A stretch of 64,000 nt of DNA from an uncultured Caldilineaceae bacterium (GTDB lineage: Bacteria; Chloroflexota; Anaerolineae; Caldilineales; Caldilineaceae): contig CATOTS010000032.1 of NCBI GenBank assembly GCA_951813625.1, forward strand, positions 1 through 64,000, in the 5' to 3' direction. The first letter of the stretch is position 1. Every line of letters begins with the position of its first letter. The notes under the pieces are model-generated. The model did no database searches, was not told the origin of the DNA, and worked only from the letters and a program-made list of their open reading frames with translations. Positions 24,729 through 51,140 of the stretch are shown piece after piece. A program made the position numbers and the translations under genes.

Positions 24729-25049
24729 ATGATCATCCTGTGAAGCATAACTGCATCCTACGAGGCAGGCTCTCAAGATAAGCTTGACGCGATCGATGTC
24801 GAGGGTCAGGCAGACGACTATGTGTTATCTGCCCTCAAGGAGGCACTCTTTCTCCATTGGTGTTTGGAACCCCACCGATGACGGGGACGTTGGCGTCGTG
24901 CATTGCTCTTGTGAGATTGTAGGTGTTGAGGATAGGGAAGACAAAGCCGCGGCTGGGGCAGAACAGAGTCGTCAACTGTTCGTCGATCAGTCATAGATTG
25001 CCCCATTATGCCATCAGTTGAAGTATCTGTGCCTTGGTCCATTCAGCTA
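24729..25049. other. Gap between methylase and phosphoesterase genes
   Basis: About 320 bases with no supported gene. The genes on both sides are minus-strand. The gap is long enough for a separate promoter for the phosphoesterase/GHKL pair but I see no strong -35/-10 pair. Whether the two halves of the defence block are one transcript is open. Confidence 0.4.
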
Positions 25050-28442: not shown

Positions 28443-31400
28443 TCGTTAAGCTCCATCCAGCATTTGAGAGAAGGTTGCACCCCTATGGGGGCATCGACTC
28501 GCTTGAGGTAGGTGTTCTTGATGTGCGTCTCCACTTTGGCACGGATTCCGATGAGCAACTTCTCATCTGTAGTGCAATTGCGAGGCGTCTGGCGGTCGGA
28601 TCGGATGCTTGTGACTATCTCACCCGGTTCTTCGAGAATCACATTACGGTCAAAATCGTAGAGATACCACTTTGTTGACCCTGCCTCGTTGGTAAACTCA
28701 CCGGTTTCCGTGTCGAGGGCCGGAAGCGCGTAGCACAAGAAGACGCCCCGTACGCCGTCTACCACCCGTCTCCGTCCGCTGAAAGTGGAACCGGGCAAAC
28801 TTCTCAGACGGGTATCCAGTTCCGGATCAATCTGTAGCAAGGATTGGTATTCGAGATGCATCTCCTCGATTGCCGTGCGTGTACCCTCGTAGGCGTGGTT
28901 GAAGTCCCTAAGTGCGTCGAAATCATCGTCGGGAGTCAAAAGCTTCTTGCCTTCGATTCCGAGCGTCTTCGAGATGAGAAGGGTTTTCTGGGTTACCCTC
29001 GTATAGAGCGTGAGGATTGCGTTGAGCTCATCGGGAGGTAAGAAATTCCAGTAGCTTACCTTGCCGCGTGAAGTCGCTGCTTGGGGGTGTTGAGCTAGGA
29101 TCCGTTTCTCAATCTCCGGGTTCATTCGACGGTCGACGCGTCCGATACGCTGCATAAGCCGCACTGGGTTCCAGTGGATGTCGTAGTTGATGAGCCGCGA
29201 GGCATCCTGCAGGTTGAGTCCCTCTGAGAGCACGTCCGTGGAGATGAGAACCCTGATCTCCTGTAGGCCGGCATCCTCAAGTTCAGCCGAGGAACTACCG
29301 TTGTAGAAGGGTGAAAAACGCTTGATTACCTGCGCCCGATTGCCTTTAGATGCGCTATCCAATTGACCCACGCCTTCGATTTCGGCCTCGTCGAGTTGGC
29401 GTTTCAGGTACCGAGCCGTGTCCGCGAACTCCGTGAACACGAGGACTTTCTGGCTAGAGAGGTCCTTGGTCTTCAGTAGTCGGACTAGCTTGAGAAGTTT
29501 GTCGTCGTGCCGGGGCTTGAACTTCCGGGATTCGTTGAGAAACTGCACGATCTGGTCGAGATCTAGAAATGACTCGGATATCATCTCTTCGATTTCGTAC
29601 TCGTCTCGGGCAAGCTTTTCTACTGCCTCGATCATCTCCACCGGCACGATGTCCTCTTCCTCGACTTCGTCGTCCTCCTCGTTCCAGAGAGCGAACTGGC
29701 GCTGCATGGTGTAGCCGAGAATCTCTGCGTTTTGCGTTTTCCACCGGCTAAGACGCCCTTTCTCGCTCTCGGTTTCACTGTGAACTTCAATGAAGGCCAG
29801 GAGTTTCTTGAGGAGCCGGTTGCATGATAGCTCGAAGGCCGTTACGGAGCTTTCGAACCGCTTGAGAAAATTCGTCCGAATTAGACCCACAACTTGTTGC
29901 TGTCGATTCTGTTCGAAAGGGTCAATATCTTGGTCTGACCCTTTGTACCAGTAGAGTGGGTAATACATGGGGAGCGTGAAGAGTGGATTCTCCCGCGTGA
30001 AGGCTTTTTCGAACAGGTCTAGTAGGCGTCCGTAAGTCTTGCGTATCGAATATGCGGCTACTTGCGGAGCCTTACGTTCTGGAAATGCCGTAGACTGCCC
30101 GGTCTCGCGTATCTGGCTTTCACGTGCATAGCCACGGCTGCGCTGCACCACGAGTTGACGGAATATTGCGTCGGCGGAGAGGATGTCCTGCGCTTCGGCC
30201 CACTGGTCGGAGACATCTGTCACAGTGTGGCCCACGCGCTGGCGAAAGACCCGCTCCATCTGATTGACGTGAGACCTAAGACTGTTAACGCCTAACGTTC
30301 GGGCGAAGTAAGCTTCGTTCCGACGCGTGAACAGTTCAACCATGTGGCGGAAGTCGCTCAGCCGATTGTTGATCGGTGTCGCCGTAAGCATGAAAACTGT
30401 CTTGGGTCGCACGGCGTGATCTAGGAGATCGTACAGGCGATAGTAGCGAGAAGGCTCCCTCCCGTTGTCATTTCCTCGCCTACCAGGGTTCCTAAAATGG
30501 TGTGCTTCGTCTATGATCACGGCGTCGGCCAACTCGGCTATGCGCTGGAATCGCTCTGGGAAGTCTCCCTTCCTGTGAAGATCGGTGTGGCTGAAGACAG
30601 CCAAGTTGCTGAAGTCGGTTGCCCCACCTCCGATGTGCGGCAGCCACTCTCGCAGGTGGGGTTCCCACACGCCCTCTTTCGTGGCTTTAGGTGCGAACAG
30701 CACGACGCGTTTGCCTTCGTGGAGGATCAGACGCTCGATAAGCATCAAGCCGACGAAGGTCTTGCCGAGCCCCACCCCATCACAGAGAAACGCTCCTCCG
30801 TGCTGCCGAGCAATTTTCATGAGAGCCCAATAGGCTTCTTGTTGGTAACGGTCAAGTTGGTGGAAAATCCTCGACTTGGTTTCGTCCCACTCGGTGGCAG
30901 TCAGTTCATGGCCGCGGAAGAACTCCTGTAGCGCTTTCGCATAAACTTCGAATGGCGAGTAAAGGCGGGTGTGCCGTTCAATCGTCTCAACTAATATGTC
31001 GCTTACTTCTTTGGCCTCATTCCAATGCTCTTCGAACCAATCTTGGAGTTGTGCCACCTCACGAGCGCTTTGAATTTGCACGTTGAGCTCGATGTTCTCT
31101 GTGAGTCCAGGTCTCGTGAAATTGCTGGATCCCACCAATGCCTGCGAACCAACGACTTCGAGTTTGGCATGCGTTATGTAAGTTTTCGCGTGGAACTTGC
31201 CCTTGTCGTACACACGGCATTCGATTTGACCGCTGCGTAGTCCTTCGAGAACTGCCGGTACCCCATGCAAGAAGGGATTGTCTTGCTTGTTAGACTCGAT
31301 GCTCTGATCAAGGGTTTCAACCGACCGGGCGCGTACGGAGTCGAGAAGCGCTTTGCGCGTCCTCTGGTTTGTTTCCGCACCCATAAGGACGCGAATTTTT

Positions 31401-31576
31401 TCCAGTCCTTGCCATTTCCCATCCAAGGCAAGGAGCGCGCCGATTTCGAAAAACCCTGTCGCTACATCGAAGGCCCTTGCAATGTTGGACCATTCTTCCA
31501 GGTAACGTAGCCCTGTCCAGCCAGCTATGCTATTGTCGACGACGAAGAGTTCTCGACCTGTAGGGTCGGTGTTCAT
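28439..31576 (-). CDS. PLD-nuclease / SNF2-type helicase fusion
   Basis: 1045 residues. Residues 1-190 form a phospholipase-D-like nuclease: FHAKTYITHAKLEVVGS followed by SSNFTRPGLTEN (H-x-K...S-N). An SF2 helicase follows: CDGVGLGKTFVGLMLIE (Walker A), VIIDEAHHFRN (DEAH), LTATPINNRLSDF (motif III), TDVLSEGLNLQDA and LMQRIGRVDRR (motifs V-VI). The long insert between the lobes is acidic and helical. The fusion resembles the nuclease-translocase half of a restriction complex. Its ATG is 1 base after the preceding 88-residue gene and its stop overlaps the methylase start. Confidence 0.85.
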   Translation of the reverse strand: MNTDPTGRELFVVDNSIAGWTGLRYLEEWSNIARAFDVATGFFEIGALLALDGKWQGLEKIRVLMGAETNQRTRKALLDSVRARSVETLDQSIESNKQDNPFLHGVPAVLEGLRSGQIECRVYDKGKFHAKTYITHAKLEVVGSQALVGSSNFTRPGLTENIELNVQIQSAREVAQLQDWFEEHWNEAKEVSDILVETIERHTRLYSPFEVYAKALQEFFRGHELTATEWDETKSRIFHQLDRYQQEAYWALMKIARQHGGAFLCDGVGLGKTFVGLMLIERLILHEGKRVVLFAPKATKEGVWEPHLREWLPHIGGGATDFSNLAVFSHTDLHRKGDFPERFQRIAELADAVIIDEAHHFRNPGRRGNDNGREPSRYYRLYDLLDHAVRPKTVFMLTATPINNRLSDFRHMVELFTRRNEAYFARTLGVNSLRSHVNQMERVFRQRVGHTVTDVSDQWAEAQDILSADAIFRQLVVQRSRGYARESQIRETGQSTAFPERKAPQVAAYSIRKTYGRLLDLFEKAFTRENPLFTLPMYYPLYWYKGSDQDIDPFEQNRQQQVVGLIRTNFLKRFESSVTAFELSCNRLLKKLLAFIEVHSETESEKGRLSRWKTQNAEILGYTMQRQFALWNEEDDEVEEEDIVPVEMIEAVEKLARDEYEIEEMISESFLDLDQIVQFLNESRKFKPRHDDKLLKLVRLLKTKDLSSQKVLVFTEFADTARYLKRQLDEAEIEGVGQLDSASKGNRAQVIKRFSPFYNGSSSAELEDAGLQEIRVLISTDVLSEGLNLQDASRLINYDIHWNPVRLMQRIGRVDRRMNPEIEKRILAQHPQAATSRGKVSYWNFLPPDELNAILTLYTRVTQKTLLISKTLGIEGKKLLTPDDDFDALRDFNHAYEGTRTAIEEMHLEYQSLLQIDPELDTRLRSLPGSTFSGRRRVVDGVRGVFLCYALPALDTETGEFTNEAGSTKWYLYDFDRNVILEEPGEIVTSIRSDRQTPRNCTTDEKLLIGIRAKVETHIKNTYLKRVDAPIGVQPSLKCWMELNE

Positions 31577-31843
31577 TCAGTCCTCCCAGTTGGAGCCTGC
31601 TGATTCCGCTCTATCGCTAGTGGGTTGTGATCTGGCCGCCTGGGTCATCGCCTGGATCCAAGAATCAATAAGCTCTCTTTGAAACTGCCACTGACCACAG
31701 ACAATAGAATCAAGGCAGGTTGCCTTAACTGTTGTTGAAGTCTTCGTTCTGAATAACCTCTCGCCTACGAAGGGCGATTCTGAGGGAGGTTGCCGTTCTT
31801 GACCAAGGGACTGACCCTCCACAGGATCGGTGATTTGCTCCAT
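31577..31843 (-). CDS. Small hypothetical protein inside the defence operon
   Basis: 88 residues from ATG 31841-31843, one base after the UvrD-like gene's stop, and ending exactly where the PLD-helicase gene starts. It is polar, with a C-terminal helix (QWQFQRELIDSWIQAMTQAA) and two cysteines. No family is recognised. The perfect fit between its neighbours argues it is a real component, perhaps an adaptor or regulator, rather than spacer. Confidence 0.55.
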   Translation of the reverse strand: MEQITDPVEGQSLGQERQPPSESPFVGERLFRTKTSTTVKATCLDSIVCGQWQFQRELIDSWIQAMTQAARSQPTSDRAESAGSNWED

Positions 31844-31844
31844 T

Positions 31845-34178
31845 TCAGCGCTTGCCGTGCGTTTGGCGCGAAGAGGTCCGGTCTCCGGGTATCCAGTCCC
31901 ACATTTCTGGGGCCTTCTGCTTGGCCCTCTTTTCGGGAGCACAGTCGGCATAACTTTGCCTGTATGTGAAAGGCCTCTCTGCTGCGGTCAGTTGCACTTT
32001 GGCCAGTTCTTTCCTTACATTGTCGGTCAAAAAGTCGGAGTACCGTGCTTTCACGGTACCGACTATCTGGTGATATGCGGCCAGATGCCGGCAGACATGT
32101 GCCAGACGATGCCCTTCCTCATGGCGAACGGCGGGCAACAATTCGTTAGCAATTTTCTCCGTCTGATGCAATTCCATCTCTTCCAGGAAGCGTGATGAGG
32201 TCGCGCCGGTCTCCCCAGATGGAGCTGAGTTCTTATCCGGAGACTTTTTGGCAGATTCGACTTCAGGCGCGCCGATGTACACCCCCTTGCGGGCACGAGT
32301 TATGCCTACGTAAAACAGCCTGCGTTCGTTTTCGATCCACTCGGCCGCTTTGGGTTCGCGTTGGGGTTGCTTCTTATCGTAGGTGGGGTCATCGCTTTCG
32401 GCAAACACCGGCATGAATCCCTCGCGACAGTCAGGAATAAAAACGTAGTCAAACTCCAATCCTTTGGTCCTGTGGATGGTTGTCATCTTTATCCAAAATT
32501 CCTCCGGCCGTCCTTGCGTTGTATCGATGTTGTCAACGTGGGCGATAAAATCTTTCCAGCCGCGGTTTGCGTGCCGGGCGTAGCGTTTCAAAGCCGTTAT
32601 ATTTTGAGTCCGCGCGAGCGAAGGTTCGCCCTGTCCGTAGTAGCTTTCGTAATGCTGCTGGAGTTTGATCTCCCCGTCAATCCACTCCAACAACCTTTGA
32701 GCAGGTACTTGGAGGGCGGTTCGTATCTTTTGACTTATCTCCTCTAAGACGGAGGTCAGGTCCTCCAGATTTTGCTTCTGTTCACCGCGCGCGAATTTGG
32801 TTGAGTCGCGCAAAACCTCGGCTAGCAGATCTCTCAGGGATTTCCCGTTAGCGCGTCCAGCCTGGAGCATGCGAGACAACTCCCTGCGAGCCAAGTAACG
32901 GCTCGGTTTGTTTGCAATGTTGAGGAATCGTTTTTCGACAGCCTCGGTTGGAATCAGATCCAGAGAGTCGGCGACTCGAATGTAGTCCAACAGCGCTTGA
33001 CATTCATTGGCCTCGAGAAAGAAAGACCCTCCACCTATCACCTTGAACGGTATGCGGAGCATCAAGAATTCCGTAGAGAGAGAGTTGAGTTGGGCGAAGG
33101 TGCGGCCAAGTACTCGAATGTCAGCTGGTTTCACGCCATTTTTCTTGACCAAGGCTATGATTTCCTCAGCCAGGTGACGATTGGTGCTGCCCGGCAGCTT
33201 TCCCATAACCGTGATCTGGCTGTCTAAAGTAGGATCATGAGCGAGTAAGCTCTTTTCATTGCGATTTGTGTTGTGCGTGATGACATTGTAACTGGTTTGG
33301 GCGATGCTGTAGCCAAACCGAAAGGAATGGCTAAGACGGTAAGTGACGTGTGGCTTGTTGTTGAAGGTTGTCATGAATTCACGCAGGATGTATTCGCTGC
33401 GCGCCCCCCGCCATTCGTAGATCGTCTGATCATCATCTCCTACAACCATTACGTCAGCGTCGCGAGAGGCAAGAAGCTCGAGGAGGCGCTGTTGGCCTAG
33501 ATTGATGTCCTGATATTCGTCGACAATGAGATAACGCAAGGGCCCTGCGAACTCCGAAAGCGTGTCCGCGTTTGACTCAAGCAGATTGACAGCGAGAGGA
33601 ATGAAATCGTCGAAAGTGACGGCATTCTCTTCAGACCTGCGCTCTTCAAATTCCTGGTATATCGCTACGTGAACATTGGCATTGGGCCCGGAGTAGGCTG
33701 CCCGGTCTGGGGGAATCAGGGCACCTTTCCACAAACTGATGGCGCGCGCGGCATCCTCAAAGTCTATTTCCTCTTCAGACAGATCATGCGCTTTCAACAC
33801 AGTGGAGATGGTTCTCTTAAGGTTCAAATTAGCGAGTTCTCCGTACTCTCCCAGCCATTTTTTATGGGAAGCCAAGTTCGCCACACGATAGGCATAACTG
33901 TGGAACGTGTCGACATGGGGTTGCCTGTTGCGCCTTATCCCCAGCTCGACCAGTTTATCCGTGAACTGATTTCGAGCCAGGTGATTGAACATCAACACGT
34001 GAATCTGGTTTCTTGGCACCCCGCGTTTTTTCATCAGATGCTCAATGCGGAGCGCCATTGTCGTGGTCTTTCCGGAGCCGGCCACAGAGAGTACACGTCC
34101 GTGGTGTCCGTCGGGGTGTTGGATGACTTGCCGCTGCTCATCTGTAAGGGCGATAGAAGTTGGATGCTCTACATTCAT
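31845..34178 (-). CDS. UvrD/Rep-type superfamily 1 DNA helicase
   Basis: 777 residues from ATG 34178 (GGAGA upstream; an ATG eleven codons earlier lacks one). Motifs in order: LTDEQRQVIQ (Q motif), VLSVAGSGKTTTMALRIEHL (Walker A), YLIVDEYQDINLGQQRLLEL (DExQD), VVGDDDQTIYEWRGA (motif III), MTTIHRTKGLEFDYVFIPD (motif V) and ERRLFYVGITRARKG (motif VI). Complete and full length. It opens the minus-strand operon and probably unwinds or translocates on invader DNA together with the downstream PLD-helicase and methylase. Confidence 0.85.
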   Translation of the reverse strand: MNVEHPTSIALTDEQRQVIQHPDGHHGRVLSVAGSGKTTTMALRIEHLMKKRGVPRNQIHVLMFNHLARNQFTDKLVELGIRRNRQPHVDTFHSYAYRVANLASHKKWLGEYGELANLNLKRTISTVLKAHDLSEEEIDFEDAARAISLWKGALIPPDRAAYSGPNANVHVAIYQEFEERRSEENAVTFDDFIPLAVNLLESNADTLSEFAGPLRYLIVDEYQDINLGQQRLLELLASRDADVMVVGDDDQTIYEWRGARSEYILREFMTTFNNKPHVTYRLSHSFRFGYSIAQTSYNVITHNTNRNEKSLLAHDPTLDSQITVMGKLPGSTNRHLAEEIIALVKKNGVKPADIRVLGRTFAQLNSLSTEFLMLRIPFKVIGGGSFFLEANECQALLDYIRVADSLDLIPTEAVEKRFLNIANKPSRYLARRELSRMLQAGRANGKSLRDLLAEVLRDSTKFARGEQKQNLEDLTSVLEEISQKIRTALQVPAQRLLEWIDGEIKLQQHYESYYGQGEPSLARTQNITALKRYARHANRGWKDFIAHVDNIDTTQGRPEEFWIKMTTIHRTKGLEFDYVFIPDCREGFMPVFAESDDPTYDKKQPQREPKAAEWIENERRLFYVGITRARKGVYIGAPEVESAKKSPDKNSAPSGETGATSSRFLEEMELHQTEKIANELLPAVRHEEGHRLAHVCRHLAAYHQIVGTVKARYSDFLTDNVRKELAKVQLTAAERPFTYRQSYADCAPEKRAKQKAPEMWDWIPGDRTSSRQTHGKR

Positions 34179-34454
34179 CTCTACTGTCTCCGTATGGCGG
34201 GACTTAACCATTGGATCACGAACAGAGGGGTGCGGCAGGCTCTAATCGAGGCGCGCACGTCGATCCAGCCCTTATCGAACTGGCAGCCGCGATCAAGGAG
34301 TCCTCAATCGCCATCCGCGCCGCCAAGGGCCAGCCGCCGCCCGCCCGGGACTGAGCTCCAGGACGACCGCTACATGACGGCTTGGCGCTATAATTTCAAC
34401 GGGCCCGGCATACAGAATTAAATGCGTATGCCTTGGGCCTGCCCTCTGGTAGAG

Positions 34455-40930: not shown

Positions 40931-43210
40931 CTATGCCCATCGTTGCTTCACATATCCGACGAGATCGGATCCTTCGAGGATACGGGTCGAGTTGTTCACT
41001 CGGGCGAAGAAGACTTTGCCACCCTTGGAGACCTTGGCATAGATCGGTTCGGGTGATGGAGTTACGCGCACGAATGCGACCTGAAGGCCGTTGACAGCCT
41101 CTAGATGAATCTTTGCCATCGTCGAAGCGAGTGGTCCGAGTGAACGCCCGATTGCCGTGGTGAGCGAGTTTACGTAGCGGTCCCCGTCCATGTCCTTTTT
41201 GTCCAGGTCTGGTTGGATCCCAAGGATTTCGCCGTCATCCGCGACACCAATTGCGAGGGTGCCACCATTGGAGTTCAGGAAGCCCGCGACGGTCTTTAGA
41301 ATGGACTCCGTGATGACTCTCTCTGGGATGTCCGGCCTGTAGCTGAAGTACGCAGATGATTTGAACTCGACCCACCCAGTTTCCATCTGAGCTAAGAGAT
41401 CTTCGGCGGACCACTCGGGGAGGCGTGCTGAAAACGGCGGTTCCTCCTCGGGAAGCTGGCCCATGCGAAGTTTGTCGAAGGCCGCTCGAACTACCTTGGC
41501 AATGAGCAGCCGCCGTTGTTGAAGGAAGTCCCGATAGTCCATCTGCTCCCAGCCTTCGGGCAAGGCGTGCCAAAACCGCGCTTGTTTTTGCTGCTGCTGC
41601 GTAAGCTCGTTAAAGAGAGGAGGGAAATACTCGCTGGGTGGGGCGTCGCCGATTTTCGCGTTGTCAGGCCATTCGACGAAGGCGTAATTGGCTATCTGAT
41701 TCCGGTGTCCGGTGCGGTCGATACCGATGCGTGTCAGGTATGCTTTGGGAAACAGATGGTGGCGTTCGACAGCAGATCGAGGAGCGTGGGTCGATGGATC
41801 CAGCAACTCACCCAAATGCAACGGCGAGAACAGGGGGTGGGCATTGAGAAGTACAAGGCTAGCGGAGTACGCGAACACAGTCGGCCCGTAGGCCGATGAC
41901 GTTTCCAGAGAGCTAGGTAGTTGAATGTTCCAAAAGTCTTCCGTAAGAGCCGTGTCGATGATCCCGTTCAAAGTTGCTGTGAAGTCCTCACCTGACTTCG
42001 CCTCTGCAATACGGCGGAGGTCCTGTTCGACCCTGCTCTCGAAGTTCCCTGTGTATCGACCGGTGAGGGATGTCATGAAGAACCATTGAGCGATCGTTTC
42101 GCGAAGGGTCTTGCGGTCGAGATCAAAGTCCCGATGTCCGATCAGGTATATCAGGTAGGAGAACATAAGGTTGTTCTCCGAACTGATCATCGTTCGGCTA
42201 CGGTAGCCAGCCCGGCGCACAGCCTTTAGAAACTCGTGCCAATTGGTCAGTGACAGGGTCTCCGCCTGAGCCTTCTGTAGCGCGGCGAACTGTTTCTCAC
42301 GAATTACAGCCGAGATCTCACCGGTCTCCATGTCTTTGCCGCGGAGAACCTGATAGACGTACCGAAGTCGGCCTCGGCGAAGGGCAAGGCCCGCGACAAC
42401 GCGCAGCATCTGGTCCGCCGACGGGTCGATGAATGGGTTGGCCGGAGATGGGGTCGACTGTGGGATCCTAGCGTCGCGAGCGAATGCTTCCAACTGCTTG
42501 CGGCCCTCCTCCCACCAAACGGACATCAGAGTAAGAATGAAGTCGGCCTGGCTGAGTTGGACCCCCTCGCTATTGATGCGTACGAATACGTCCGCGACCT
42601 GTTCCTCGTCTACATTGGATCCCAGTTCCAAGACTTTGAATGGGTAGAAACGGAGGTTGTAGAGCCGGCTGATCGCCTCCTCAAGATCTTCTCGCTGATG
42701 CTCCGTCAGTTCACCCTTGCTTGCCTCTAGGCGCTTGAGAAACTCTCGTACCTTTTTGATCTGGCTTCCGCCGTCCCACAGAATCGAAATGTCACGTATG
42801 AATTCCGGGTTCTTTGCCACTGCGGCATCGGCAACTTCAAATCTGCCGTCCCGGGGCCGAAACGCGATACGAATCCGTGAGGAGGTGTAGTCGTCGCGGA
42901 GCACTTCTTTTCCCGTGAGTACGGCGTAGAGGCTCGTCAGGCGCTGCTGGCCGTCCACGATCATTAAGCGCGGTGCAGCTTCATGGGCATGCGTGCCGAT
43001 TCGGCGGGCATCTACTTCGACACCAGTTGCCCAAAAGAGCAGATGGCCTACTGGGAAGCCACGGTACATCGAGTCGAATAGGTCTCGGACTTTGGCTGGC
43101 TTCCAGACGAAGGGCCGCTGGATGTCCGGTAGAGCGATCTCGCCTCTGTCGATTTCACCAAGCAGGGTGGACAGGTCGTAGGAACTGTCCTTAAAGACTG
43201 TGATGGCCAT
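40931..43210 (-). CDS. GmrSD-like DUF262/DUF1524 restriction protein fused to an AlbA_2 domain
   Basis: 759 residues from ATG 43210. The N-terminal DUF262 domain: LPDIQRPFVWKPAKVRDLFD, RLMIVDGQQRLTSLYAVLTG (D-G-Q-Q-R, nucleotide-driven), FVRINSEGVQLSQADFILTL. Around residue 495 DUF1524 has the HNH motif VERHHLFPKAYLTRIG. From about residue 600 there is an AlbA_2/Schlafen-type domain: WVEFKSSAYFSYRPDIPERV, GFLNSNGGTLAIGVADDGEI. GmrSD enzymes cut DNA with modified bases; the extra C-terminal domain is unusual for them. It is divergent from the XRE/ImmA genes. Confidence 0.85.
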   Translation of the reverse strand: MAITVFKDSSYDLSTLLGEIDRGEIALPDIQRPFVWKPAKVRDLFDSMYRGFPVGHLLFWATGVEVDARRIGTHAHEAAPRLMIVDGQQRLTSLYAVLTGKEVLRDDYTSSRIRIAFRPRDGRFEVADAAVAKNPEFIRDISILWDGGSQIKKVREFLKRLEASKGELTEHQREDLEEAISRLYNLRFYPFKVLELGSNVDEEQVADVFVRINSEGVQLSQADFILTLMSVWWEEGRKQLEAFARDARIPQSTPSPANPFIDPSADQMLRVVAGLALRRGRLRYVYQVLRGKDMETGEISAVIREKQFAALQKAQAETLSLTNWHEFLKAVRRAGYRSRTMISSENNLMFSYLIYLIGHRDFDLDRKTLRETIAQWFFMTSLTGRYTGNFESRVEQDLRRIAEAKSGEDFTATLNGIIDTALTEDFWNIQLPSSLETSSAYGPTVFAYSASLVLLNAHPLFSPLHLGELLDPSTHAPRSAVERHHLFPKAYLTRIGIDRTGHRNQIANYAFVEWPDNAKIGDAPPSEYFPPLFNELTQQQQKQARFWHALPEGWEQMDYRDFLQQRRLLIAKVVRAAFDKLRMGQLPEEEPPFSARLPEWSAEDLLAQMETGWVEFKSSAYFSYRPDIPERVITESILKTVAGFLNSNGGTLAIGVADDGEILGIQPDLDKKDMDGDRYVNSLTTAIGRSLGPLASTMAKIHLEAVNGLQVAFVRVTPSPEPIYAKVSKGGKVFFARVNNSTRILEGSDLVGYVKQRWA

Positions 43211-43606
43211 GTGGATTCGGGCGATGGTGTCCAGTGTTTGCAACCCAGGGGCGGGGGGGACTCCGCAAGTATACAGGCTGCTTCGGTTGATTACAACTTC
43301 CTTCCCATTAACGCAGTTCTCCTCGCCTCCAGGCGAACACGGGAACTCGCCCTAAAAGTGCCGCAGGAGGGCTTCCTTTCCGACGCTCCGGTCGCTGGTA
43401 GTAATGCAACGATGAAGAAATGTTATGCTCATGTATCCCCTTGCGTTTATCGCTATTAGGTCTACGGCGTTGACACGTCCTAGACTACAGAAAAGCCTAG
43501 TGACGGTAGATCACCGGGGAGCATGTGTGTCTCAACTAGCGTCCTTCGAATTCTTCTTGATTGAATGAAGGCTTAGGCAATCCGAATATCCATTCTCGTC
43601 AACACT

Positions 43607-43706: not shown

Positions 43707-44063
43707 ATGCCGGAACGCTTCGGAGATGCCCTTAGAAGAAGCCGGCACGATGCCGGCAAGACTCTCGGGGATGTCGCGAAGCTGTTGGGCGTCTCTGTGG
43801 TTTACGTATCCGATGTGGAGCGCGGGAACCGCAGACCGTTCAACAACGATCGCATCCTCAAAGTCGCGCGGTTTGTCGAGACAGATCCAGCCCCTCTGAT
43901 CACCGCGGCGAATGTCGAGCGAGGTGTCATTGAGTACGACATCTCTAAAGGCAAGCCACTTGCGGCCGCCGTGGTAGGAGACCTCGTCAGTGGCCTTGCC
44001 CGCGGCGGCGTCACCGACGATCAGCTCAAGAAGATCAGGGCAATCTTGGAAGATTCCGATTAG
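43707..44063 (+). CDS. XRE-family regulator, ImmR-like
   Basis: 118 residues, ATG 43707 after AGGAGAGAAAAGGT. Helix-turn-helix near the start: RFGDALRRSRHDAGKTLGDV then AKLLGVSVVYVSDVERGNRR. The C-terminal half (SKGKPLAAAVVGDLVSGLAR) is helical and may mediate dimerisation or contact with the peptidase. It is 13 bases ahead of the ImmA/IrrE gene. In ImmR/ImmA pairs the regulator is cleaved on DNA damage or invasion to release its targets. Here it may control its own promoter and that of the adjacent ubiquitin-like operon. Confidence 0.8.
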   Translation: MPERFGDALRRSRHDAGKTLGDVAKLLGVSVVYVSDVERGNRRPFNNDRILKVARFVETDPAPLITAANVERGVIEYDISKGKPLAAAVVGDLVSGLARGGVTDDQLKKIRAILEDSD

Positions 44064-44076
44064 AAAATCAGTGACG

Positions 44077-44709
44077 ATGCCTAGAAGACTTTCAGGAATC
44101 CGCGCCGACCGCGGCTACAGCTATCGGGGGCTTGAACGCTGCGCCGCAGATGTTCGCGAGCAGCTTAGGCTCCCTCCGACTGTTGCCATCAATGCGATGA
44201 TGCTATTCGATAGACTCGACATCACGGCACAGGACGGGACTGGCCAGGACATTCCCATTCATGGCTATGTGATTGAGCTCGAAGACTTGGAAGGGTTCAC
44301 GAAGTACGATAGAGACCGCCAGATTATCGAGATTCTGGCGTCGGCCCAGACGTACGAATGGTTGGAACAGGATCACCCGCGTAGTCGTTACTTCCTAGCG
44401 CACGAGTTGGGACACTGCCTGCTGCACACGGACCAGCTCGTGCGTCTGGCACAAATGCCGATGGCGCAACGGGCGGGACTCCATCGAAACGGACAGATGG
44501 CTGCACACGAGGTTTATCGCGACACCGAGTGGCAGGCCAACGCGTTTGCCAGCGCTCTTCTTATGCCCGCCAGAGGCCTGCTGGCGCTTGAGAAGAGGCA
44601 TAGGGGCGGGCTCTGTCCGATCAAAATCGCGGCGCACTTCCGCGTATCAGTCGTAGCCGCGAGTTACCGGCTCGATCTATACAACAAACGGAAGCAACAG
44701 CTTTTCTAG
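44077..44709 (+). CDS. ImmA/IrrE-type metallopeptidase
   Basis: 210 residues from ATG 44077. FLAHELGHCLLH (about residue 105) is the HEXXH zinc site, and DTEWQANAFASALLMPARGL provides the downstream Glu and the E-x2-A-N-x-F-A-x2-L-L-M-P signature of the family. The C terminus (AAHFRVSVVAASYRLDLYNK) is the usual small helical domain. It is expected to cleave the XRE repressor encoded immediately upstream. Confidence 0.85.
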   Translation: MPRRLSGIRADRGYSYRGLERCAADVREQLRLPPTVAINAMMLFDRLDITAQDGTGQDIPIHGYVIELEDLEGFTKYDRDRQIIEILASAQTYEWLEQDHPRSRYFLAHELGHCLLHTDQLVRLAQMPMAQRAGLHRNGQMAAHEVYRDTEWQANAFASALLMPARGLLALEKRHRGGLCPIKIAAHFRVSVVAASYRLDLYNKRKQQLF

Positions 44710-44890: not shown

Positions 44891-44919
44891 TTGACAAAAT
44901 TTAGCGTATGTGCTAACAT
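44891..44919 (+). promoter_or_regulatory. Promoter of the ubiquitin-like operon with inverted repeat
   Basis: TTGACA (44891-44896), 17 bases, TAACAT (44914-44919). TTAGCGTATGTGCTAA inside it is an inverted repeat (TTAGC-n6-GCTAA) covering the spacer and the -10. Sequence and register resemble the XRE/ImmA promoter at 43607, which suggests a shared operator. Confidence 0.65.
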
Positions 44920-44965
44920 GTGAATCATGACCGTCGAAGCATGAGATTGCAACAAGGAGCTTGTA

Positions 44966-45433
44966 ATGATTGAGATTTTTCTTCACCAGCGATCCAAGGC
45001 GATAGAGTTCGTCAAGATAGAACCAACCAAGAAGGTCGAGGACTTCGGCACCGAATGTATCGGAGAAGGAGCATTTGTTTGGGTTGAGGGCGTAGATGAG
45101 GCGCTTGATGCCGCGAAAACGCTTGCAGAAGCAGGGGTGTTTGAACGGTGCCACGTTCACGTCTCGTTCTGCAAGAATGTTATGGTCAAAGTTCGTTATG
45201 CCGGTGGTGTCATCGAGGATTCATTCTCGCCGGCCACTACTGGCGGAGCGATCCTGAAGTGGGCTGTGAGCCCCGAAGGCTTCAAGCTGACTGATAGCGA
45301 AAGTGCCAAACATCTGCTCTCGGTCTGCGAGACGGAAACCGAGCTTGACCAAGCGGAGCACATCGGATTTTTTGCGGACGATGATTGCTCAATATGCCTT
45401 GACCTCGTTCCCAAGGAACGATTCGCGGGATAA
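44966..45433 (+). CDS. Ubiquitin-like protein (BilA-like), first gene of conjugation operon
   Basis: 155 residues, ATG 44966 after AAGGAGC. Two beta-grasp-sized segments: residues 1-72 (MIEIFLHQRSKAIEFVKIEP ... VHVSFC) and 72-155 (KNVMVKVRYAGGVIEDSFSP, then GFKLTDSESAKHLLSV). The layout recalls ISG15/BilA proteins with two ubiquitin-like domains. The C terminus is VPKERFAG, with one Gly rather than Gly-Gly. Assignment rests on position before E2-like, JAB and E1-like genes and on size. It would be the modifier attached to target proteins. Confidence 0.65.
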   Translation: MIEIFLHQRSKAIEFVKIEPTKKVEDFGTECIGEGAFVWVEGVDEALDAAKTLAEAGVFERCHVHVSFCKNVMVKVRYAGGVIEDSFSPATTGGAILKWAVSPEGFKLTDSESAKHLLSVCETETELDQAEHIGFFADDDCSICLDLVPKERFAG

Positions 45434-45442
45434 GGGGCAATT

Positions 45443-45919
45443 GTGAACTCAATGTCGCCGGATGAACGGGTGTTTCATGATCATATATCGGGTGCTCGGT
45501 TTCAAAATGGTGTTGAGCGAGGTAGGTGGCGACTCGTCGGCGATATCGAATGGCCCATTGTGCTGCTCGCTGTGTCTGCGGGGTCAAGGGACAACGCCCC
45601 GGAGGAGTTTTTCCTACGCTTTGACCTAACCGGATATCCCGCGTCAGCTCCAACAGCGATGCCATGGAATCCCAAGAGGGGAACCGTGCTGGATGCGGAC
45701 AAAAGACCCAAAGGCGACCGGGTGGGCCACGTGTTTCGTAGCGACTGGGAGGAGGGGAGAGCCCTTTACGCACCCTTTGATCGGGTGGCATTGGATCGTT
45801 ACCACCCTGACTGGCGAAAGCAATATCCTCGCCAAGCGTGGAATGCTGAAAGAGATCTTGCATGGGTCCTACAAACCTTGCATCAGATGCTAAATGACGA
45901 TGATTATACGGGGATTTAG
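45443..45919 (+). CDS. E2/UBC-fold-like protein without any cysteine
   Basis: 158 residues from GTG 45443 (AAGGGGC upstream). FFLRFDLTGYPASAPTAMPW resembles the Y-P-x-x-P-P turn of E2 enzymes, and HVFRSDWEEGRALYAPFDRV, then AERDLAWVLQTLHQMLND, fits the active-site loop and last helix. At the place of the catalytic Cys the sequence is GRALYAPFDR, and the whole protein contains no Cys. It is therefore an E2-like scaffold or non-canonical carrier rather than a thioester-forming E2. Start of the JAB gene overlaps its end by 26 bases. Confidence 0.65.
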   Translation: MNSMSPDERVFHDHISGARFQNGVERGRWRLVGDIEWPIVLLAVSAGSRDNAPEEFFLRFDLTGYPASAPTAMPWNPKRGTVLDADKRPKGDRVGHVFRSDWEEGRALYAPFDRVALDRYHPDWRKQYPRQAWNAERDLAWVLQTLHQMLNDDDYTGI

Positions 45920-46433
45920 ATCGTTTCTTGATTGGTGTCGCTGGCTGTGGCCAAGTCGAGCCTACATCGAAATTGATCTCGAGTTGTGGCTACAGATGAT
46001 TGAGGAACTCGGTCGCAGAAGTCTTGGCGGGCGTCGTGAAACGGGCGTCTTTTTGCTTGCTTCTATCCTAGAGAGCCCACGTCATGTGGTTAAGCCAGTC
46101 TATTTCGATGATCTCGACCCTGAGTGTTTGGTTGGCAACATTCATATTCGCTCCTTCGGTTTCTCAAAACTCTGGGAGCTTTGTGAAGAGGAAAATCTTT
46201 GCGTCATCGCGGACATTCATACGCACCCTGGCTCTTCGGTCGACCAAAGCCTCACAGACCGGGAGAACCCCATGATCGCGCGCGAGGGACATTTCGCACT
46301 CATCGTGCCTTACTTCGGAACACGTTCAGTCCAAGCCCGGGAGGTTGGGGTTCACGAGTATCGTGGAGACCGTGGATGGGCATCATGGTTTGGCCCTAAG
46401 GCGGAACGTGTTCTCCGGATAAGGAGCTATTAA
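45894..46433 (+). CDS. JAB/MPN (JAMM) deubiquitinase-like metallopeptidase
   Basis: 179 residues. The JAMM zinc site is complete: Glu in GRRETGVFLL (about residue 49), ADIHTHPGSSVDQSLTDREN with His109, His111, Ser and Asp122. The ~20-residue N-terminal Trp-rich helix (FRSFLDWCRWLWPSRAYIEI) may be a membrane or protein contact. It would trim the ubiquitin-like precursor or remove it from targets. It overlaps the E2-like gene and its stop shares bases with the E1 start (TAATG). Confidence 0.8.
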   Translation: MTMIIRGFRSFLDWCRWLWPSRAYIEIDLELWLQMIEELGRRSLGGRRETGVFLLASILESPRHVVKPVYFDDLDPECLVGNIHIRSFGFSKLWELCEEENLCVIADIHTHPGSSVDQSLTDRENPMIAREGHFALIVPYFGTRSVQAREVGVHEYRGDRGWASWFGPKAERVLRIRSY

Positions 46434-47851
46434 TGGACATACTCTGTTCTGACCGTCTTCACCGCACGATAAAGCTAGAGCTGGATGAAGGTCGCGCTCG
46501 CAATATTGATGAGGCGCAAGAGATCGCGGCCCGCTACGTTCTCCAAATCGACGTAGGTAGTGGAATTGCCGAAAGTGAGACCCGGCAAGCAATGTTGCTT
46601 ACAACGATCAACGCTGCCCATCGTGCGTTCATTGGCGGGGTGCGAGTTCGGCTTCAAGAAGAAGGACAAATGAGCCTCGGATGGGCAGAGGGGCTGAAGG
46701 TGTCCAAAGCTGTCGAAGCTTACGGGGGCAAGATCGTCGAATCCTTAGAATTCGAACACCCCACACTCGTGATTGGCTATGTGAACGAAAAGCCACCTGG
46801 GGAAATAGTCCTGCATACAACTTGGGAAGGGTGGTCAGGCGGAATCGTTGAGGAGGAGAAAGATCGGCTCGCCGAGTCATTAGAATTCCCTTTGGCGGGC
46901 ATGCTCGCGGCAGCACTTGGCGTTTCCGAGGCATTTCAAAATGTGCGCGGCTATCCCGTAGCAGGCCGACGTTCGGCCGGCCTCTCGCTTTGGGACCCGC
47001 GGTGCGACTGGCGTAGTGAGCCTGCCTACGGTGAGCCATGCCTCTATCTGCCTAATCGGATCTGGTTGGTAGGCCTTGGTCACCTCGGGCAGGCATATGC
47101 GTGGGGACTTGGTTTGATTCCCTACGAAGACCACACAGATGTTGCTCTTGTTCTTCAGGACTACGACATTATTATAAAGGCGAATAGAAGCACTGGGATG
47201 CTTAGCAGTGACTCATCATTTGGCCAGAAGAAATCGCGTGTTATCGCGGCTCGTCTTGAGAGGCTAGGATTCAGAACGACCATTACCGAGCGTCCCTTTA
47301 ACACTGCGACATGCCGTAGCTTTGACGAGCCTGGCGTCGCACTTGTGGGGATCGATGATCCTGCCCCTCGGCGACTTCTAGAGATGGCAGGTTTCGATTT
47401 AGTTGTAGATGCGGGATTGGGGAGTGGCGCACAGAACTACTTAGACATCTTGATTCATTCATTCCCATCAGGCCTTAGCGCGAAGAATGCATGGCCACAA
47501 GAGCCCCCATCGTCAGTAAGCTCGCTTGTTTGTCAGCCTGCGTATTTGGAACTCCAACGACAACTTGGCAGATCGACGGAACTAACCGATGGAGAGATCA
47601 AGTGCGGCATTATTGAAGTGGCTGAAAGATCAGTAGGTGCCGCATTTGTAGGCTGCGTCGCGGCTGCATTTGTGCTTTCGGAAGTTCTCCGTACCCTTGT
47701 CGGAGGCCCGCGATTTGAAGTCGTAGACATTTCCCTTCGCAGTCCTCACAATCCGCAAGTAGCGAGAAATACACGTCAGGGGCCACCGGTTAACCCAGGA
47801 TTTGCAGTTGCTCGTTCTCAGCCTCTCGACGCTCCGACATTCCGCAGGTAA
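46433..47851 (+). CDS. E1/ThiF-like ubiquitin-activating enzyme with extra N-terminal domain
   Basis: 472 residues. Residues 1-200 are an additional domain of unknown fold. From about 205 the Rossmann ATP site reads RIWLVGLGHLGQAYAWGLGL, with QDYDIIIKANRSTGML and FGQKKSRVIAARLERLGFRT as the adenylate-binding D, N-R and K positions. A plausible catalytic Cys lies near residue 391 in GEIKCGIIEVAERSVGAAFV. This enzyme would adenylate the C terminus of the ubiquitin-like protein. Gene order Ubl-E2-JAB-E1 matches Bil-type anti-phage systems. Confidence 0.8.
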   Translation: MDILCSDRLHRTIKLELDEGRARNIDEAQEIAARYVLQIDVGSGIAESETRQAMLLTTINAAHRAFIGGVRVRLQEEGQMSLGWAEGLKVSKAVEAYGGKIVESLEFEHPTLVIGYVNEKPPGEIVLHTTWEGWSGGIVEEEKDRLAESLEFPLAGMLAAALGVSEAFQNVRGYPVAGRRSAGLSLWDPRCDWRSEPAYGEPCLYLPNRIWLVGLGHLGQAYAWGLGLIPYEDHTDVALVLQDYDIIIKANRSTGMLSSDSSFGQKKSRVIAARLERLGFRTTITERPFNTATCRSFDEPGVALVGIDDPAPRRLLEMAGFDLVVDAGLGSGAQNYLDILIHSFPSGLSAKNAWPQEPPSSVSSLVCQPAYLELQRQLGRSTELTDGEIKCGIIEVAERSVGAAFVGCVAAAFVLSEVLRTLVGGPRFEVVDISLRSPHNPQVARNTRQGPPVNPGFAVARSQPLDAPTFRR

Positions 47852-48472: not shown

Positions 48473-48706
48473 ATGGCAGAGTCTGGCGCTGTGGAGCCTG
48501 GTGGAAGCTCAGAAGAGATTCTGGCCAACATTATCGAATCCCTTAGACAAAATGAGGCAACCGACATCTCCTTACTGGAGATAATATCGAAGCACATAGT
48601 TACCTTGTCGCCGGCAGAAGACGCCATTGATGCGGCTGTGAAGGACATCGAAACGGTTGCAAATCAGAGAGGGGAGCAAGTTGACCAAACCATCCGTCAC
48701 GATTGA
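48473..48706 (+). CDS. Small acidic protein paired with an SMC-like ATPase
   Basis: 77 residues, ATG 48473 after GAGGTGA. Helical and acidic (SSEEILANIIESLRQNEATD, DAIDAAVKDIETVANQRGEQ), no cysteines. It overlaps the ATPase start by about 26 bases, so the two are translated together. Small middle genes before SMC-like ATPases are common in defence loci; the role here, perhaps regulator of the ATPase, is inference. Confidence 0.65.
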   Translation: MAESGAVEPGGSSEEILANIIESLRQNEATDISLLEIISKHIVTLSPAEDAIDAAVKDIETVANQRGEQVDQTIRHD

Positions 48707-51140
48707 AAAGATCAAAGTGCAAGGGTTTCGGGCATACCTGCAACCTCAGACCTTCACACTGGCCTCTGGAAAGAGGCCTCTTAGTCTGGCCATTTTTGGC
48801 CCCAATGCAAAAGGCAAGTCGAGCCTGGTGGACTCCTTTGAGTACTATTTTTCTGAGGATGCCACCCTTAAGCGGCTGGGCAATCGGGCTTCTCAGACGA
48901 ATGCCGGTCCTACGGCCATAGCGCATGTGGAAGCTCAAGATGAGGGCATAAATCCCTCGGTTCACTTTTGGTTCAATCGAAATGGGGAAAAGTTCGATGC
49001 AGCGCGACCAGCTGATAATTCGATCCCTGAGGCAGCGAAGCAGATCCGCTCGACTATCAAAATCCCTTTTGTGATCCGAGGCCATGAGCTCAGGAGCTTT
49101 GTCGAACAAATCACTCCGGGAGCACACTATAAAGAGCTGGTAAATTGGTTCGGCCTTGACTTACTTTTGCGAGTCCAGCAAAACCTCCGAACCCTGAGAA
49201 GAAGGGTAAAGGAAAGGTCGGAATCGACCTCGGAAGCAGATGAAAGGTCTCATGACCTGTCACGCGAGACCGGTGGCGAAGTTACAAAGTGGAATGACAA
49301 TGAAGTATGCAAATGGCTGAACAACGAGGTCCTCGCCTGCTTAGACAGTTCCCTCACCTTCACTGAGTTTTCTGAAAAGGATCCCGCTTTCGCCATTCTG
49401 ACCGCCCGTAGGAATGCGGAGCAAGAAAAGTTGGGCTTGGCACCACTGCGAAGGATTTCCCGCTCGTTGGAGGACCTCGCCTTACCCTTGGACGGAACTG
49501 ATGGGGAACCAGCAGGTAAGATTCCAGCGTTCGAGCAGGCGGTGACGCGGCTTAATCAGGCGGTAGTCCATGAAGAGGCTGAACGATCAAGAGCAAGTGA
49601 CGCTGTGTTCAGCCAAGTTTGGGCGGAGGCGAAGCAATTATTTGATAAAGATGAAGTGTTTGACTTTTGTCCAATTTGCGACGCAAATCTGGCGACCGGA
49701 CCTCATGGATCTCACGACGGGGTCCGGAATAACATTGACAAGAAACTCTCCAGTTTGGCTACTTATCGAGAGGCGGAGGAGGAGCTGAAGACTTCAAAGA
49801 AACAGGTGAAACAGGCGATTGACTCCCTGAAGAACAGCATGGAAGCATTGAAACTTGATCTCAATGACGCCGCTTTCGCTTGTGAAGAGGTGGAGAATTA
49901 CTTCCAAGCGTTAGTCCGGTGGAATATCGATGCAGAACCGCCTGCGAGTCAGGATGTGGTTGGAGCATTGTCAAAGGTTTACATCACCATTGCTAACCAG
50001 ATAACGCAAATCGAACTCCAGCAGGGAGAACACACCTACGGCAAAGCTCTCGAAACCGTACACAAGCTACTCAACATCAGCGCTGACTTGCAGAGAATCG
50101 CGCGAACCAAGGCTGAGTTGAAATCACTTCAGGTCGAATTGGACCGTCAGGTATTGGAAATCGACAAATCCATTGTGGCCCACATCCAGAGCCTTATCGG
50201 CAAGCTCGAAAGTGATATTGCATCCATTTACAAGGACATTCAGGGCACTGGCGAGACGTCGTACCCGATTCGGATTGAACTCTCTGGCCAAGATGGGATT
50301 GACCAACAGAAGGCCCAACTGCTGATAGACTTTTCAGTTAACCGGAAAGGTGTCGTCCCGGGTGGCTATCTGAGTGATTCACAGGTGCACACTTTGGCGT
50401 TGGCTCTCCGTCTTGCCGCTATTCGAATGTTTAACTCGGAGGCGCCTATCCTTGTGCTGGATGACGTGGTGACTTCCTACGATGCTGATCATCGCAAGAC
50501 CATCGTAGGCGCACTAGCCAAATATTTCTCCGGGTTTCAAATCGTTTTGGTTACTCATGATGAACAGTTTTTCAACCTGCTAAAGGACCAATTTCCCCCA
50601 GGTAGTTGGGTTTTCAAGCGGATCATGGAGAATCGAGAGGGTTTCGGCCCGGTTTTTCATGACCACCTAACTTCAGACGAGGTCATTCAGGCAAAGTTGG
50701 ACGCGGGTGAAAATGCCGGTGTTGAAATAAGGCAAGCCCAGGAAGAGTGGCTGCTACGAATTTGCCGGGAATTCCGCGCCAAAGTCACCATTCGCCCGAT
50801 AGAGAGGGCATATCAATATGACCGCGGGGAGTTGGCTGATTCGTTGGCTAGCTTCCTAAAAGGGGTCAAAATGAAGATACCCCCAACCACGACTGCCTCC
50901 AACCGTTTCCTTGAGAGTTTGCAGCGTGGCGTGGTGGAGAATCTGTCGAGCCATTTTTCGGACAACCCCAACAAGAGCAGTTCGGTTGGCGATGACCGGG
51001 CCAGATGGGAGGAGTTCAAAGGCTTCCGAGAGTTATTCAAGTGCCCATCTTGTGGCAAACAGCGTTTCAAGCGGCCAGTGGGGCTGGACAAACCAGTGTG
51101 TCACTACTGCCAAACCCAGTTCGCGTTCTCTTTACCTTGA
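48681..51140 (+). CDS. SMC/RecF-like ABC ATPase with zinc hook and terminal zinc ribbon
   Basis: 819 residues from TTG 48681, chosen because GAGGGGAG lies five bases upstream. IKVQGFRAYLQPQTFTLA and LAIFGPNAKGKSSLVDSFEY (Walker A) open the ATPase. Coiled coil flanks a CPICDANLATG zinc-hook-like site (about 335). The second half has YLSDSQVHTLALALRLAAIR (ABC signature), APILVLDDVVTSYDADHRKT (Walker B) and IVLVTHDEQFF (H loop). A helical extension ends in a Cys4 ribbon (CPSCGKQRF...CHYC). Resembles ATPases of Lamassu-, Septu- or ABC-3C-like systems, but no nuclease gene adjoins. Confidence 0.75.
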   Translation: MTKPSVTIEKIKVQGFRAYLQPQTFTLASGKRPLSLAIFGPNAKGKSSLVDSFEYYFSEDATLKRLGNRASQTNAGPTAIAHVEAQDEGINPSVHFWFNRNGEKFDAARPADNSIPEAAKQIRSTIKIPFVIRGHELRSFVEQITPGAHYKELVNWFGLDLLLRVQQNLRTLRRRVKERSESTSEADERSHDLSRETGGEVTKWNDNEVCKWLNNEVLACLDSSLTFTEFSEKDPAFAILTARRNAEQEKLGLAPLRRISRSLEDLALPLDGTDGEPAGKIPAFEQAVTRLNQAVVHEEAERSRASDAVFSQVWAEAKQLFDKDEVFDFCPICDANLATGPHGSHDGVRNNIDKKLSSLATYREAEEELKTSKKQVKQAIDSLKNSMEALKLDLNDAAFACEEVENYFQALVRWNIDAEPPASQDVVGALSKVYITIANQITQIELQQGEHTYGKALETVHKLLNISADLQRIARTKAELKSLQVELDRQVLEIDKSIVAHIQSLIGKLESDIASIYKDIQGTGETSYPIRIELSGQDGIDQQKAQLLIDFSVNRKGVVPGGYLSDSQVHTLALALRLAAIRMFNSEAPILVLDDVVTSYDADHRKTIVGALAKYFSGFQIVLVTHDEQFFNLLKDQFPPGSWVFKRIMENREGFGPVFHDHLTSDEVIQAKLDAGENAGVEIRQAQEEWLLRICREFRAKVTIRPIERAYQYDRGELADSLASFLKGVKMKIPPTTTASNRFLESLQRGVVENLSSHFSDNPNKSSSVGDDRARWEEFKGFRELFKCPSCGKQRFKRPVGLDKPVCHYCQTQFAFSLP

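What the first reader, a model, noticed from the sequence alone, without database searches (positions are those of the whole stretch)
44891..47851. Ubiquitin-like conjugation operon whose E2-like member has no cysteine
Four overlapping genes encode a two-domain ubiquitin-like protein, an E2-like protein, a JAMM protease with all zinc ligands, and a ThiF/E1 with ATP site and candidate catalytic Cys. The order matches Bil (ISG15-like) anti-phage systems. The E2-like protein has not one Cys in 158 residues; its active-site loop reads GRALYAPFDR. Either transfer goes directly from E1 to target, another protein supplies the Cys, or this is a distinct subfamily. The modifier ends in a single Gly, which also differs from Gly-Gly proteins.
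Basis: partly seen in the sequence, partly recalled or inferred. Interest (0 to 1): 0.85.

Follow-up and report, generated by a model that had tools for sequence, protein, structure and literature searches.

The report
Bil defence operon, cysteine-less E2
This is a complete bacterial ubiquitin-like (Bil) anti-phage operon whose conjugating-enzyme-like protein lacks the cysteine that normally carries the modifier, an absence that recurs in about a third of the related operons examined, which suggests that some of these systems attach the modifier without a working E2.

Summary
Confirmed: 44966-47851 is a full BilABCD operon; all four PADLOC Bil models match (E 1e-37 to 1e-151). BilB has no cysteine. 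Its position in the BilB family motif LYxPCDR reads LYAPFDR (Phe112). The fold is UBC/E2-like: a four-sequence AlphaFold model has pTM 0.74, and the best structural matches are E2s, including a solved bacterial E1-E2-Ubl complex.

The missing Cys is neither private to this genome nor a clade marker. Of 24 operons compared (this one included), 15 have the Cys; nine have F, W, L, Y or A. The nine do not form one clade (AU p about 1e-67); the tree needs at least three changes, or six losses if Cys cannot be regained. The closest relative keeps the Cys (55% BilB identity). The E1's candidate catalytic Cys391 (aligned with ThiF Cys184) is kept in all 25 copies. BilB remains about as conserved as BilD.

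Best reading: a functional Bil operon under a CapH/CapP-type regulator, with BilB a pseudo-E2 and BilD passing BilA on directly. Direct transfer is inferred. Inactive E2-like domains in related operons were described in 2006.

The parts
43707..44063 (+). HTH repressor, CapH-like (118 aa), probable regulator of the operon
   Evidence: Pfam HTH_31 6e-12; PADLOC capH 3e-05
43990..44709 (+). IrrE/M78-type metallopeptidase, CapP-like; open frame from the first start codon, the true start is probably further in
   Evidence: Pfam Peptidase_M78 2.8e-14; PADLOC capP 2.1e-16
44891..44919 (+). sigma-70-like promoter TTGACA-N17-TAACAT before bilA; this is where the finding's start coordinate falls
   Evidence: read directly from the sequence; function not tested
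44966..45433 (+). bilA: modifier of two ubiquitin-like domains, ends ...ERFAG (one C-terminal Gly, no tail)
   Evidence: PADLOC BilA 1.3e-37; BilA family profile matches linear di-ubiquitin in the PDB, E about 1e-5; C-terminal Gly invariant in 20 aligned BilA
45443..45919 (+). bilB: E2/UBC-fold protein (DUF7665) with no cysteine; motif LYAPFDR where most relatives have LYxPCDR
   Evidence: PADLOC BilB 1.6e-51; PF24702 1.3e-42; model pLDDT 73.7, pTM 0.74; E2 structures as best matches
45776..45778 (+). codon of BilB Phe112, at the position of the family's conserved, presumed catalytic cysteine
   Evidence: alignment of 24 BilB: C in 15, F/W/L/Y/A in 9
45894..46433 (+). bilC: JAMM/JAB protease with Glu49, His109, His111, Ser119, Asp122
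   Evidence: PADLOC BilC 6.5e-55; Prok-JAB 0.0014; alignment
46433..47851 (+). bilD: E1-like enzyme, GLGHLG loop and Cys391
   Evidence: PADLOC BilD 2.9e-151; profile matches to ThiF and the NEDD8 E1 in the PDB
47603..47605 (+). codon of BilD Cys391, candidate E1 catalytic cysteine
   Evidence: invariant in 25 of 25 BilD; aligned to ThiF Cys184 / MoeB Cys187 by profile-profile alignment

Best explanation
A functional, probably DNA-damage-inducible Bil (bacterial ISG15-like) anti-phage operon in which BilB is a pseudo-E2. BilD adenylates the C-terminal Gly of BilA and takes it onto Cys391 as a thioester. BilB keeps the UBC fold, and in this reading it binds the BilD~BilA complex and/or the target and positions it, but never carries BilA itself. 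BilA then passes directly from BilD Cys391 to a target amine, by analogy with the Collimonas Bil system perhaps on a phage tail protein. BilC removes or recycles conjugates; this BilA already ends in Gly, so it needs no trimming. CapH/CapP-type genes upstream probably release the operon on DNA damage. Shown by computation: identity of the four genes, absence of the Cys, UBC fold, conservation of the E1 Cys and JAMM ligands, recurrence of the absence. Inferred: thioester on Cys391, direct transfer, scaffold role, induction, phage target.
For: All four Bil models hit strongly. The BilB position that is Cys in 15 of 24 operons is F/W/L/Y/A in nine, while BilD Cys391 is invariant in all 25 copies and aligns with ThiF Cys184. 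The nine Cys-less proteins reject a single clade (AU p 1.4e-67, at least three changes), so absence is tolerated in several lineages. BilB stays as conserved as its partners in Cys-less pairs: window versus L001, both Cys-less, BilB 53%, BilD 43%, BilC 53%, BilA 39%, so it is not decaying. Among Cys-less BilB no Ser, Thr, Lys or other Cys is invariant that could replace the nucleophile; Y109, R114, H121 and several Trp are kept. The model is a UBC fold: Foldseek prob 1.00 to 3we5 and 3fn1, 0.99 to the bacterial E1-E2-Ubl complex 8tyz; VIA-align Z up to 8.8 with a list of E2-fold proteins. A Bil system from Collimonas blocks phage by attaching its Ubl to the central tail fibre (as told in PMC11364771). 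CapH+CapP relieve repression of immune operons when CapP binds ssDNA (as told in PMC13373217).
Against: Direct E1-to-target transfer was not observed and has no structure behind it; the BilD model was poor (pLDDT 41.7). The active-site loop of the BilB model is its least certain part. That the Cys of LYxPCDR is the catalytic one in Cys-containing BilB rests on position and conservation, not on an experiment I could read. The closest relative (L024) has the Cys, so full function without it is not guaranteed for this operon.
Confidence: 0.5

Rival explanations
1. The cysteine of LYxPCDR is not the transfer cysteine in any BilB; BilB is a non-catalytic cofactor throughout the family and the Cys merely drifts.
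For: It is replaced freely by F, W, Y, L and A while the rest of the motif is kept. Neighbouring Y109, R114 and H121 are more conserved than the Cys.
Against: It is present in 14 of the 15 members of one large clade (all but L005), and again in L024. The spacing C-x7-H equals that of Cys138 and His146 in the CEHH motif that PMC11354881 quotes for a bacterial E2 with catalytic Cys138. A Cys in the UBC active-site loop is most simply catalytic.
Confidence: 0.2
2. The operon is decaying or recently disabled: the E2 lost its Cys and the system no longer conjugates.
For: The nearest relative, L024, has the Cys. Decayed Bil operons exist: L022 has only bilD beside an IS66 element, and bilB of L021 is broken into two frames.
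Against: All four frames are open and tightly packed, E1 and JAMM sites are intact, BilB is as conserved as its partners, and eight other operons lack the Cys with intact partners.
Confidence: 0.12
3. Another E2-like protein of the host supplies the transfer cysteine in trans and BilB acts like the non-catalytic partner in the Ubc13-Mms2 pair.
For: Mms2 (1j74), an E2 variant without the Cys, is among the structural matches; the Ubc13-Mms2 pairing is established knowledge.
Against: No second DUF7665 protein and no match to UQ_con or Prok-E2_A, B, D, E in the host assembly. These are weak negatives: the control genomes rang for none of the last five families, and the assembly is about 96% complete.
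Confidence: 0.08
4. BilB still forms an intermediate through another residue, such as Tyr109 or His121.
For: Tyr109 and His121 are invariant in all BilB aligned, with and without the Cys.
Against: They are equally invariant in proteins that have the Cys, so their conservation needs no new role; no E2 is known to me that uses Tyr or His as carrier.
Confidence: 0.06
5. Sequencing or assembly error: the Cys was misread in this genome only.
For: Phe (TTT) is one base from a Cys codon, and the record is a draft assembly in 59 contigs.
Against: Eight independent records, several of them complete plasmids, lack the Cys with different residues, including L and A that are not one base from Cys.
Confidence: 0.04

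Closest known systems
Bil (bacterial ISG15-like) BilABCD anti-phage systems
   Same: Four genes in the same order, all four PADLOC models met; two-domain Ubl with C-terminal Gly, JAMM protease, E1 with conserved Cys.
   Different: E2 lacks the presumed catalytic Cys, as in 8 of the 23 other operons compared. The regulator upstream is of CapH/CapP type, whereas most Cys-containing relatives here have a UvrD-like helicase in that place.
Bacterial E1-E2-Ubl system with solved structures 8TYZ / 8TZ0 (CEHH-type E2 with Cys138, per PMC11354881)
   Same: UBC-fold E2 (Foldseek prob 0.99, VIA Z 8.6); most Cys-containing BilB share the spacing C-x7-H of Cys138 and His146.
   Different: No detectable sequence similarity between that complex and the BilB or BilD profiles; that E2 has the Cys.
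Type 6e polyUbl operons with inactive E2/RWD-like domain (Iyer et al. 2006, PMC1779556)
   Same: Tandem Ubl modifier together with an E2-fold protein without Cys, JAB and E1.
   Different: There the JAB is usually fused to the E1 and the inactive E2 is often fused to the Ubl, with a zinc-finger protein in the operon; here four separate genes in Bil order, within a family where most members have the Cys.
UEV / RWD-type Cys-less E2-fold proteins of eukaryotes (for example Mms2)
   Same: UBC fold without transfer Cys, kept for its binding functions.
   Different: Mms2 works beside a catalytic E2; no such partner was found here.
CapH/CapP DNA-damage regulators of immune operons
   Same: HTH gene plus M78 peptidase gene directly upstream, same strand.
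   Different: PADLOC scores are moderate (capH 3e-05, capP 2e-16); regulation was not tested.

Membership tests
Bil (BilABCD) operon | Four adjacent genes Ubl, E2-fold, JAB, E1 in this order | tested here: met
   PADLOC BilA/B/C/D, E 1e-37 to 1e-151; coordinates
Bil (BilABCD) operon | Modifier with two ubiquitin-like domains and a C-terminal Gly | tested here: met
   Family profile aligns with linear di-ubiquitin; Gly155 invariant
Bil (BilABCD) operon | JAMM metal ligands in BilC | tested here: met
   E49, H109-x-H111, D122 conserved in the alignment
Bil (BilABCD) operon | E1 nucleotide loop and catalytic-position Cys in BilD | tested here: met
   GLGHLG; Cys391 invariant 25 of 25, aligned with ThiF Cys184
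Bil (BilABCD) operon | Protects against phage by conjugating BilA to phage proteins | not testable with these tools
   Needs phage challenge and conjugate detection; reported for Collimonas Bil (PMC11364771)
UBC/E2 fold | alpha1, four-strand meander, active-site loop, C-terminal helices; structural match to E2s | tested here: met
   Model pTM 0.74; Foldseek prob 1.00 to 3we5, VIA Z 8.8
Catalytic E2 enzyme | Active-site cysteine | tested here: not met
   Zero Cys in 158 residues; Phe112 at the family Cys position. It is therefore filed as an E2-fold protein, not as a catalytic E2.
Type 6e polyUbl operons | JAB fused to E1, or inactive E2 fused to the Ubl, with a zinc-finger protein | tested here: not met
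   Four separate genes; no zinc-finger gene between them
CapH/CapP regulator pair | HTH gene followed by an M78 peptidase gene upstream of an immune operon | tested here: met
   cleavage and repression not testable here

The most novel reading that the evidence does not exclude
Within the Bil family, E2 catalysis has been dispensed with several times: the E1 (BilD) acts as the ligase that modifies targets directly, and a pseudo-E2 survives as a substrate or E1 adaptor. That would make some Bil operons two-step E1-to-target conjugation systems built from a former three-step cascade.
Probability: 0.4. Interest if true: 0.75.

Novelty: new variant of a known kind. Interest (0 to 1): 0.5.

Why it matters
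If Cys-less BilB operons conjugate, then E1 enzymes of this family can modify targets without an E2 thioester, which would separate the recognition role of the E2 fold from its carrier role and give natural variants in which to study each. The family offers matched pairs, such as this operon (Phe) and L024 (Cys) at 55% BilB identity, in which the E2 cysteine step can be tested directly. It also cautions that an annotated 'E2' in a Bil hit need not be an active E2.

Tried and rejected
Distinct single subfamily of Cys-less E2s: rejected by the AU test. Single Gly of BilA as an oddity: rejected, it is the family norm. Another conserved nucleophile in Cys-less BilB, or a Cys elsewhere in the operon special to Cys-less members: none found. 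Association of Cys absence with a CapH/CapP or HTH-M78 regulator: 7 of 9 Cys-less against 1 of 15 Cys-containing operons (Fisher p 0.0007), but only two or three independent pairs exist on the tree and the sign test gives p = 1, so it may be shared ancestry. The BilD residue that best separates the two sets (Asp326 here, Glu in most Cys-containing operons) looks like a clade marker: on reading the alignment, the two exceptions are L005 and L024. BilD structure prediction failed (pLDDT 41.7) and was not used. Sequence search of BilB against the PDB gave nothing. Viral-contig scans gave only two related operons, both Cys-containing; phage records none. The primary Bil papers (Hor 2024, Chambers 2024, Gong 2025) are not in the held library, so whether the Cys-less variant has been remarked on there could not be checked. 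From memory only: Paraburkholderia caffeinilytica CF1, whose plasmid operon (L012) has Tyr at the Cys position, was among the Bil systems first cloned; this was not verified.

Full report
What is there. The four frames are real and intact. PADLOC names them BilA (1.3e-37), BilB (1.6e-51), BilC (6.5e-55) and BilD (2.9e-151); Pfam sees DUF7665 for BilB (1.3e-42) and weak Prok-JAB and ThiF matches for BilC and BilD. The finding's start, 44891, is the -35 box of a promoter (TTGACA-N17-TAACAT); bilA starts at 44966. A and B do not overlap, B/C and C/D do.

Parts. A profile of 20 BilA proteins aligns over both repeats with linear di-ubiquitin in the PDB (E about 1e-5 for two-domain chains), so the modifier is two ubiquitin-like domains. 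Its last residue is one Gly in every relative, sometimes followed by a short tail; this BilA has no tail. BilC keeps Glu49, His109-x-His111, Ser119 and Asp122. BilD keeps the GLGHLG loop. Its Cys391 is invariant in 25 of 25 homologues and falls on ThiF Cys184 and MoeB Cys187 in a profile-profile alignment; the 2006 survey notes that ThiS becomes covalently linked to a conserved ThiF cysteine (PMC1779556).

BilB. An AlphaFold model from four sequences (pLDDT 73.7, pTM 0.74) is a UBC fold. Foldseek's first hits are E2 enzymes and the bacterial E1-E2-Ubl complex 8TYZ/8TZ0 (prob 0.99-1.00 for the best three, although E-values are only about 0.01). VIA-align gives Z up to 8.8, and its 50 listed rows are E2-fold proteins. 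The active-site loop (residues 91-105 and nearby) is the weakest part, so Phe112 is placed by the sequence alignment, not by the model.

The missing cysteine. Homologues were collected from plasmids, genomes and viral contigs. The motif LYxPCDR has Cys in 15 of 24 BilB; the rest have F (window), W (L001, L017, L018, L023), Y (L012, L014), L (L005) and A (L013). The flanking Tyr, Arg and His are invariant in both sets. Zero Cys in 158 residues is by itself not rare (9-24% expectation); the aligned position is what matters. PMC11354881 quotes a catalytic Cys138 with His146 for a bacterial E2 with a solved structure; the same C-x7-H spacing is seen in most Cys-containing BilB. That is the argument that this Cys is the transfer cysteine, and it is an inference.

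Evolution. A maximum-likelihood tree of all four proteins, with the active-site column left out, needs at least three changes of Cys state and rejects one Cys-less clade (lnL difference 197, AU p 1.4e-67). If Cys is ancestral and cannot be regained, six losses are needed. The window groups with L024 (same phylum, Cys present) and L001 (Acidimicrobiia, Trp). BilB stays as conserved as its partners in Cys-less pairs: window and L001 are 53% identical in BilB, 43% in BilD. So BilB without the Cys is under selection.

Context. Upstream lie an HTH gene and an M78 peptidase gene on the same strand, of CapH/CapP type, a pair that de-represses immune operons when CapP meets ssDNA (PMC13373217). HTH-M78 regulators stand beside 7 of 9 Cys-less operons and 1 of 15 Cys-containing ones, but this association is not independent of ancestry. 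The window is a defence island: type IIG restriction, PLD/SNF2 helicase, UvrD-like helicase, GmrSD-Schlafen fusion, SMC-like ATPase, integrase. The host has no other DUF7665 protein and no other E2-family match was found, with weak controls. Its 16S is at most about 74% identical to the best long plasmid-borne matches, so the host lineage was not named.

Mechanism. Most likely BilD loads BilA on Cys391 and hands it directly to the target, with BilB as an E2-fold adaptor. Shown: genes, sites, fold, recurrence. Inferred: every transfer step. The main alternative is that the Cys was never the carrier in this family. Inactive E2-like domains in polyUbl operons were already described in 2006 (PMC1779556), so the idea of a pseudo-E2 is not new; its repeated appearance inside the Bil family is, as far as the held papers show, not described, but the primary Bil papers could not be read.

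Noticed in passing
window 40931-43243 (-): GmrSD_N (DUF262) domain fused to a C-terminal Schlafen AlbA_2 domain in one 770-aa protein.
   Followed up: no
window 48657-51140 (+): RecF/SMC-like AAA ATPase of 827 aa, LmuB-like in PADLOC (1.9e-27), with two CxxC pairs at the C-terminus, directly downstream of the Bil operon.
   Followed up: no
window 25050-34211 (-): Type IIG-like restriction-methylation enzyme, PLD/SNF2 helicase and UvrD-like helicase in a row.
   Followed up: no
window 21004-24776 (-): HSP90-like ATPase-domain protein next to a calcineurin-like phosphoesterase, both with weak PADLOC hits.
   Followed up: no
L004, L006-L011, L015, L019, L028; also L005, L023: A UvrD-like helicase gene stands directly upstream of bilA in 10 of 15 Cys-containing Bil operons and in two Cys-less ones; it may be an unrecognised fifth component.
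   Followed up: partly
L001:1514-2170, L018:1517-2032, L027:1552-2061: Next to the fused HTH-M78 regulator near Bil operons lies a protein of about 170-220 aa, PIN-like by the look of its N-terminus in two of them, without a Pfam match.
   Followed up: partly
L022:4031-5320: Burkholderia cepacia plasmid carries a bilD gene without detectable bilA, bilB or bilC near an IS66 element: a remnant.
   Followed up: partly
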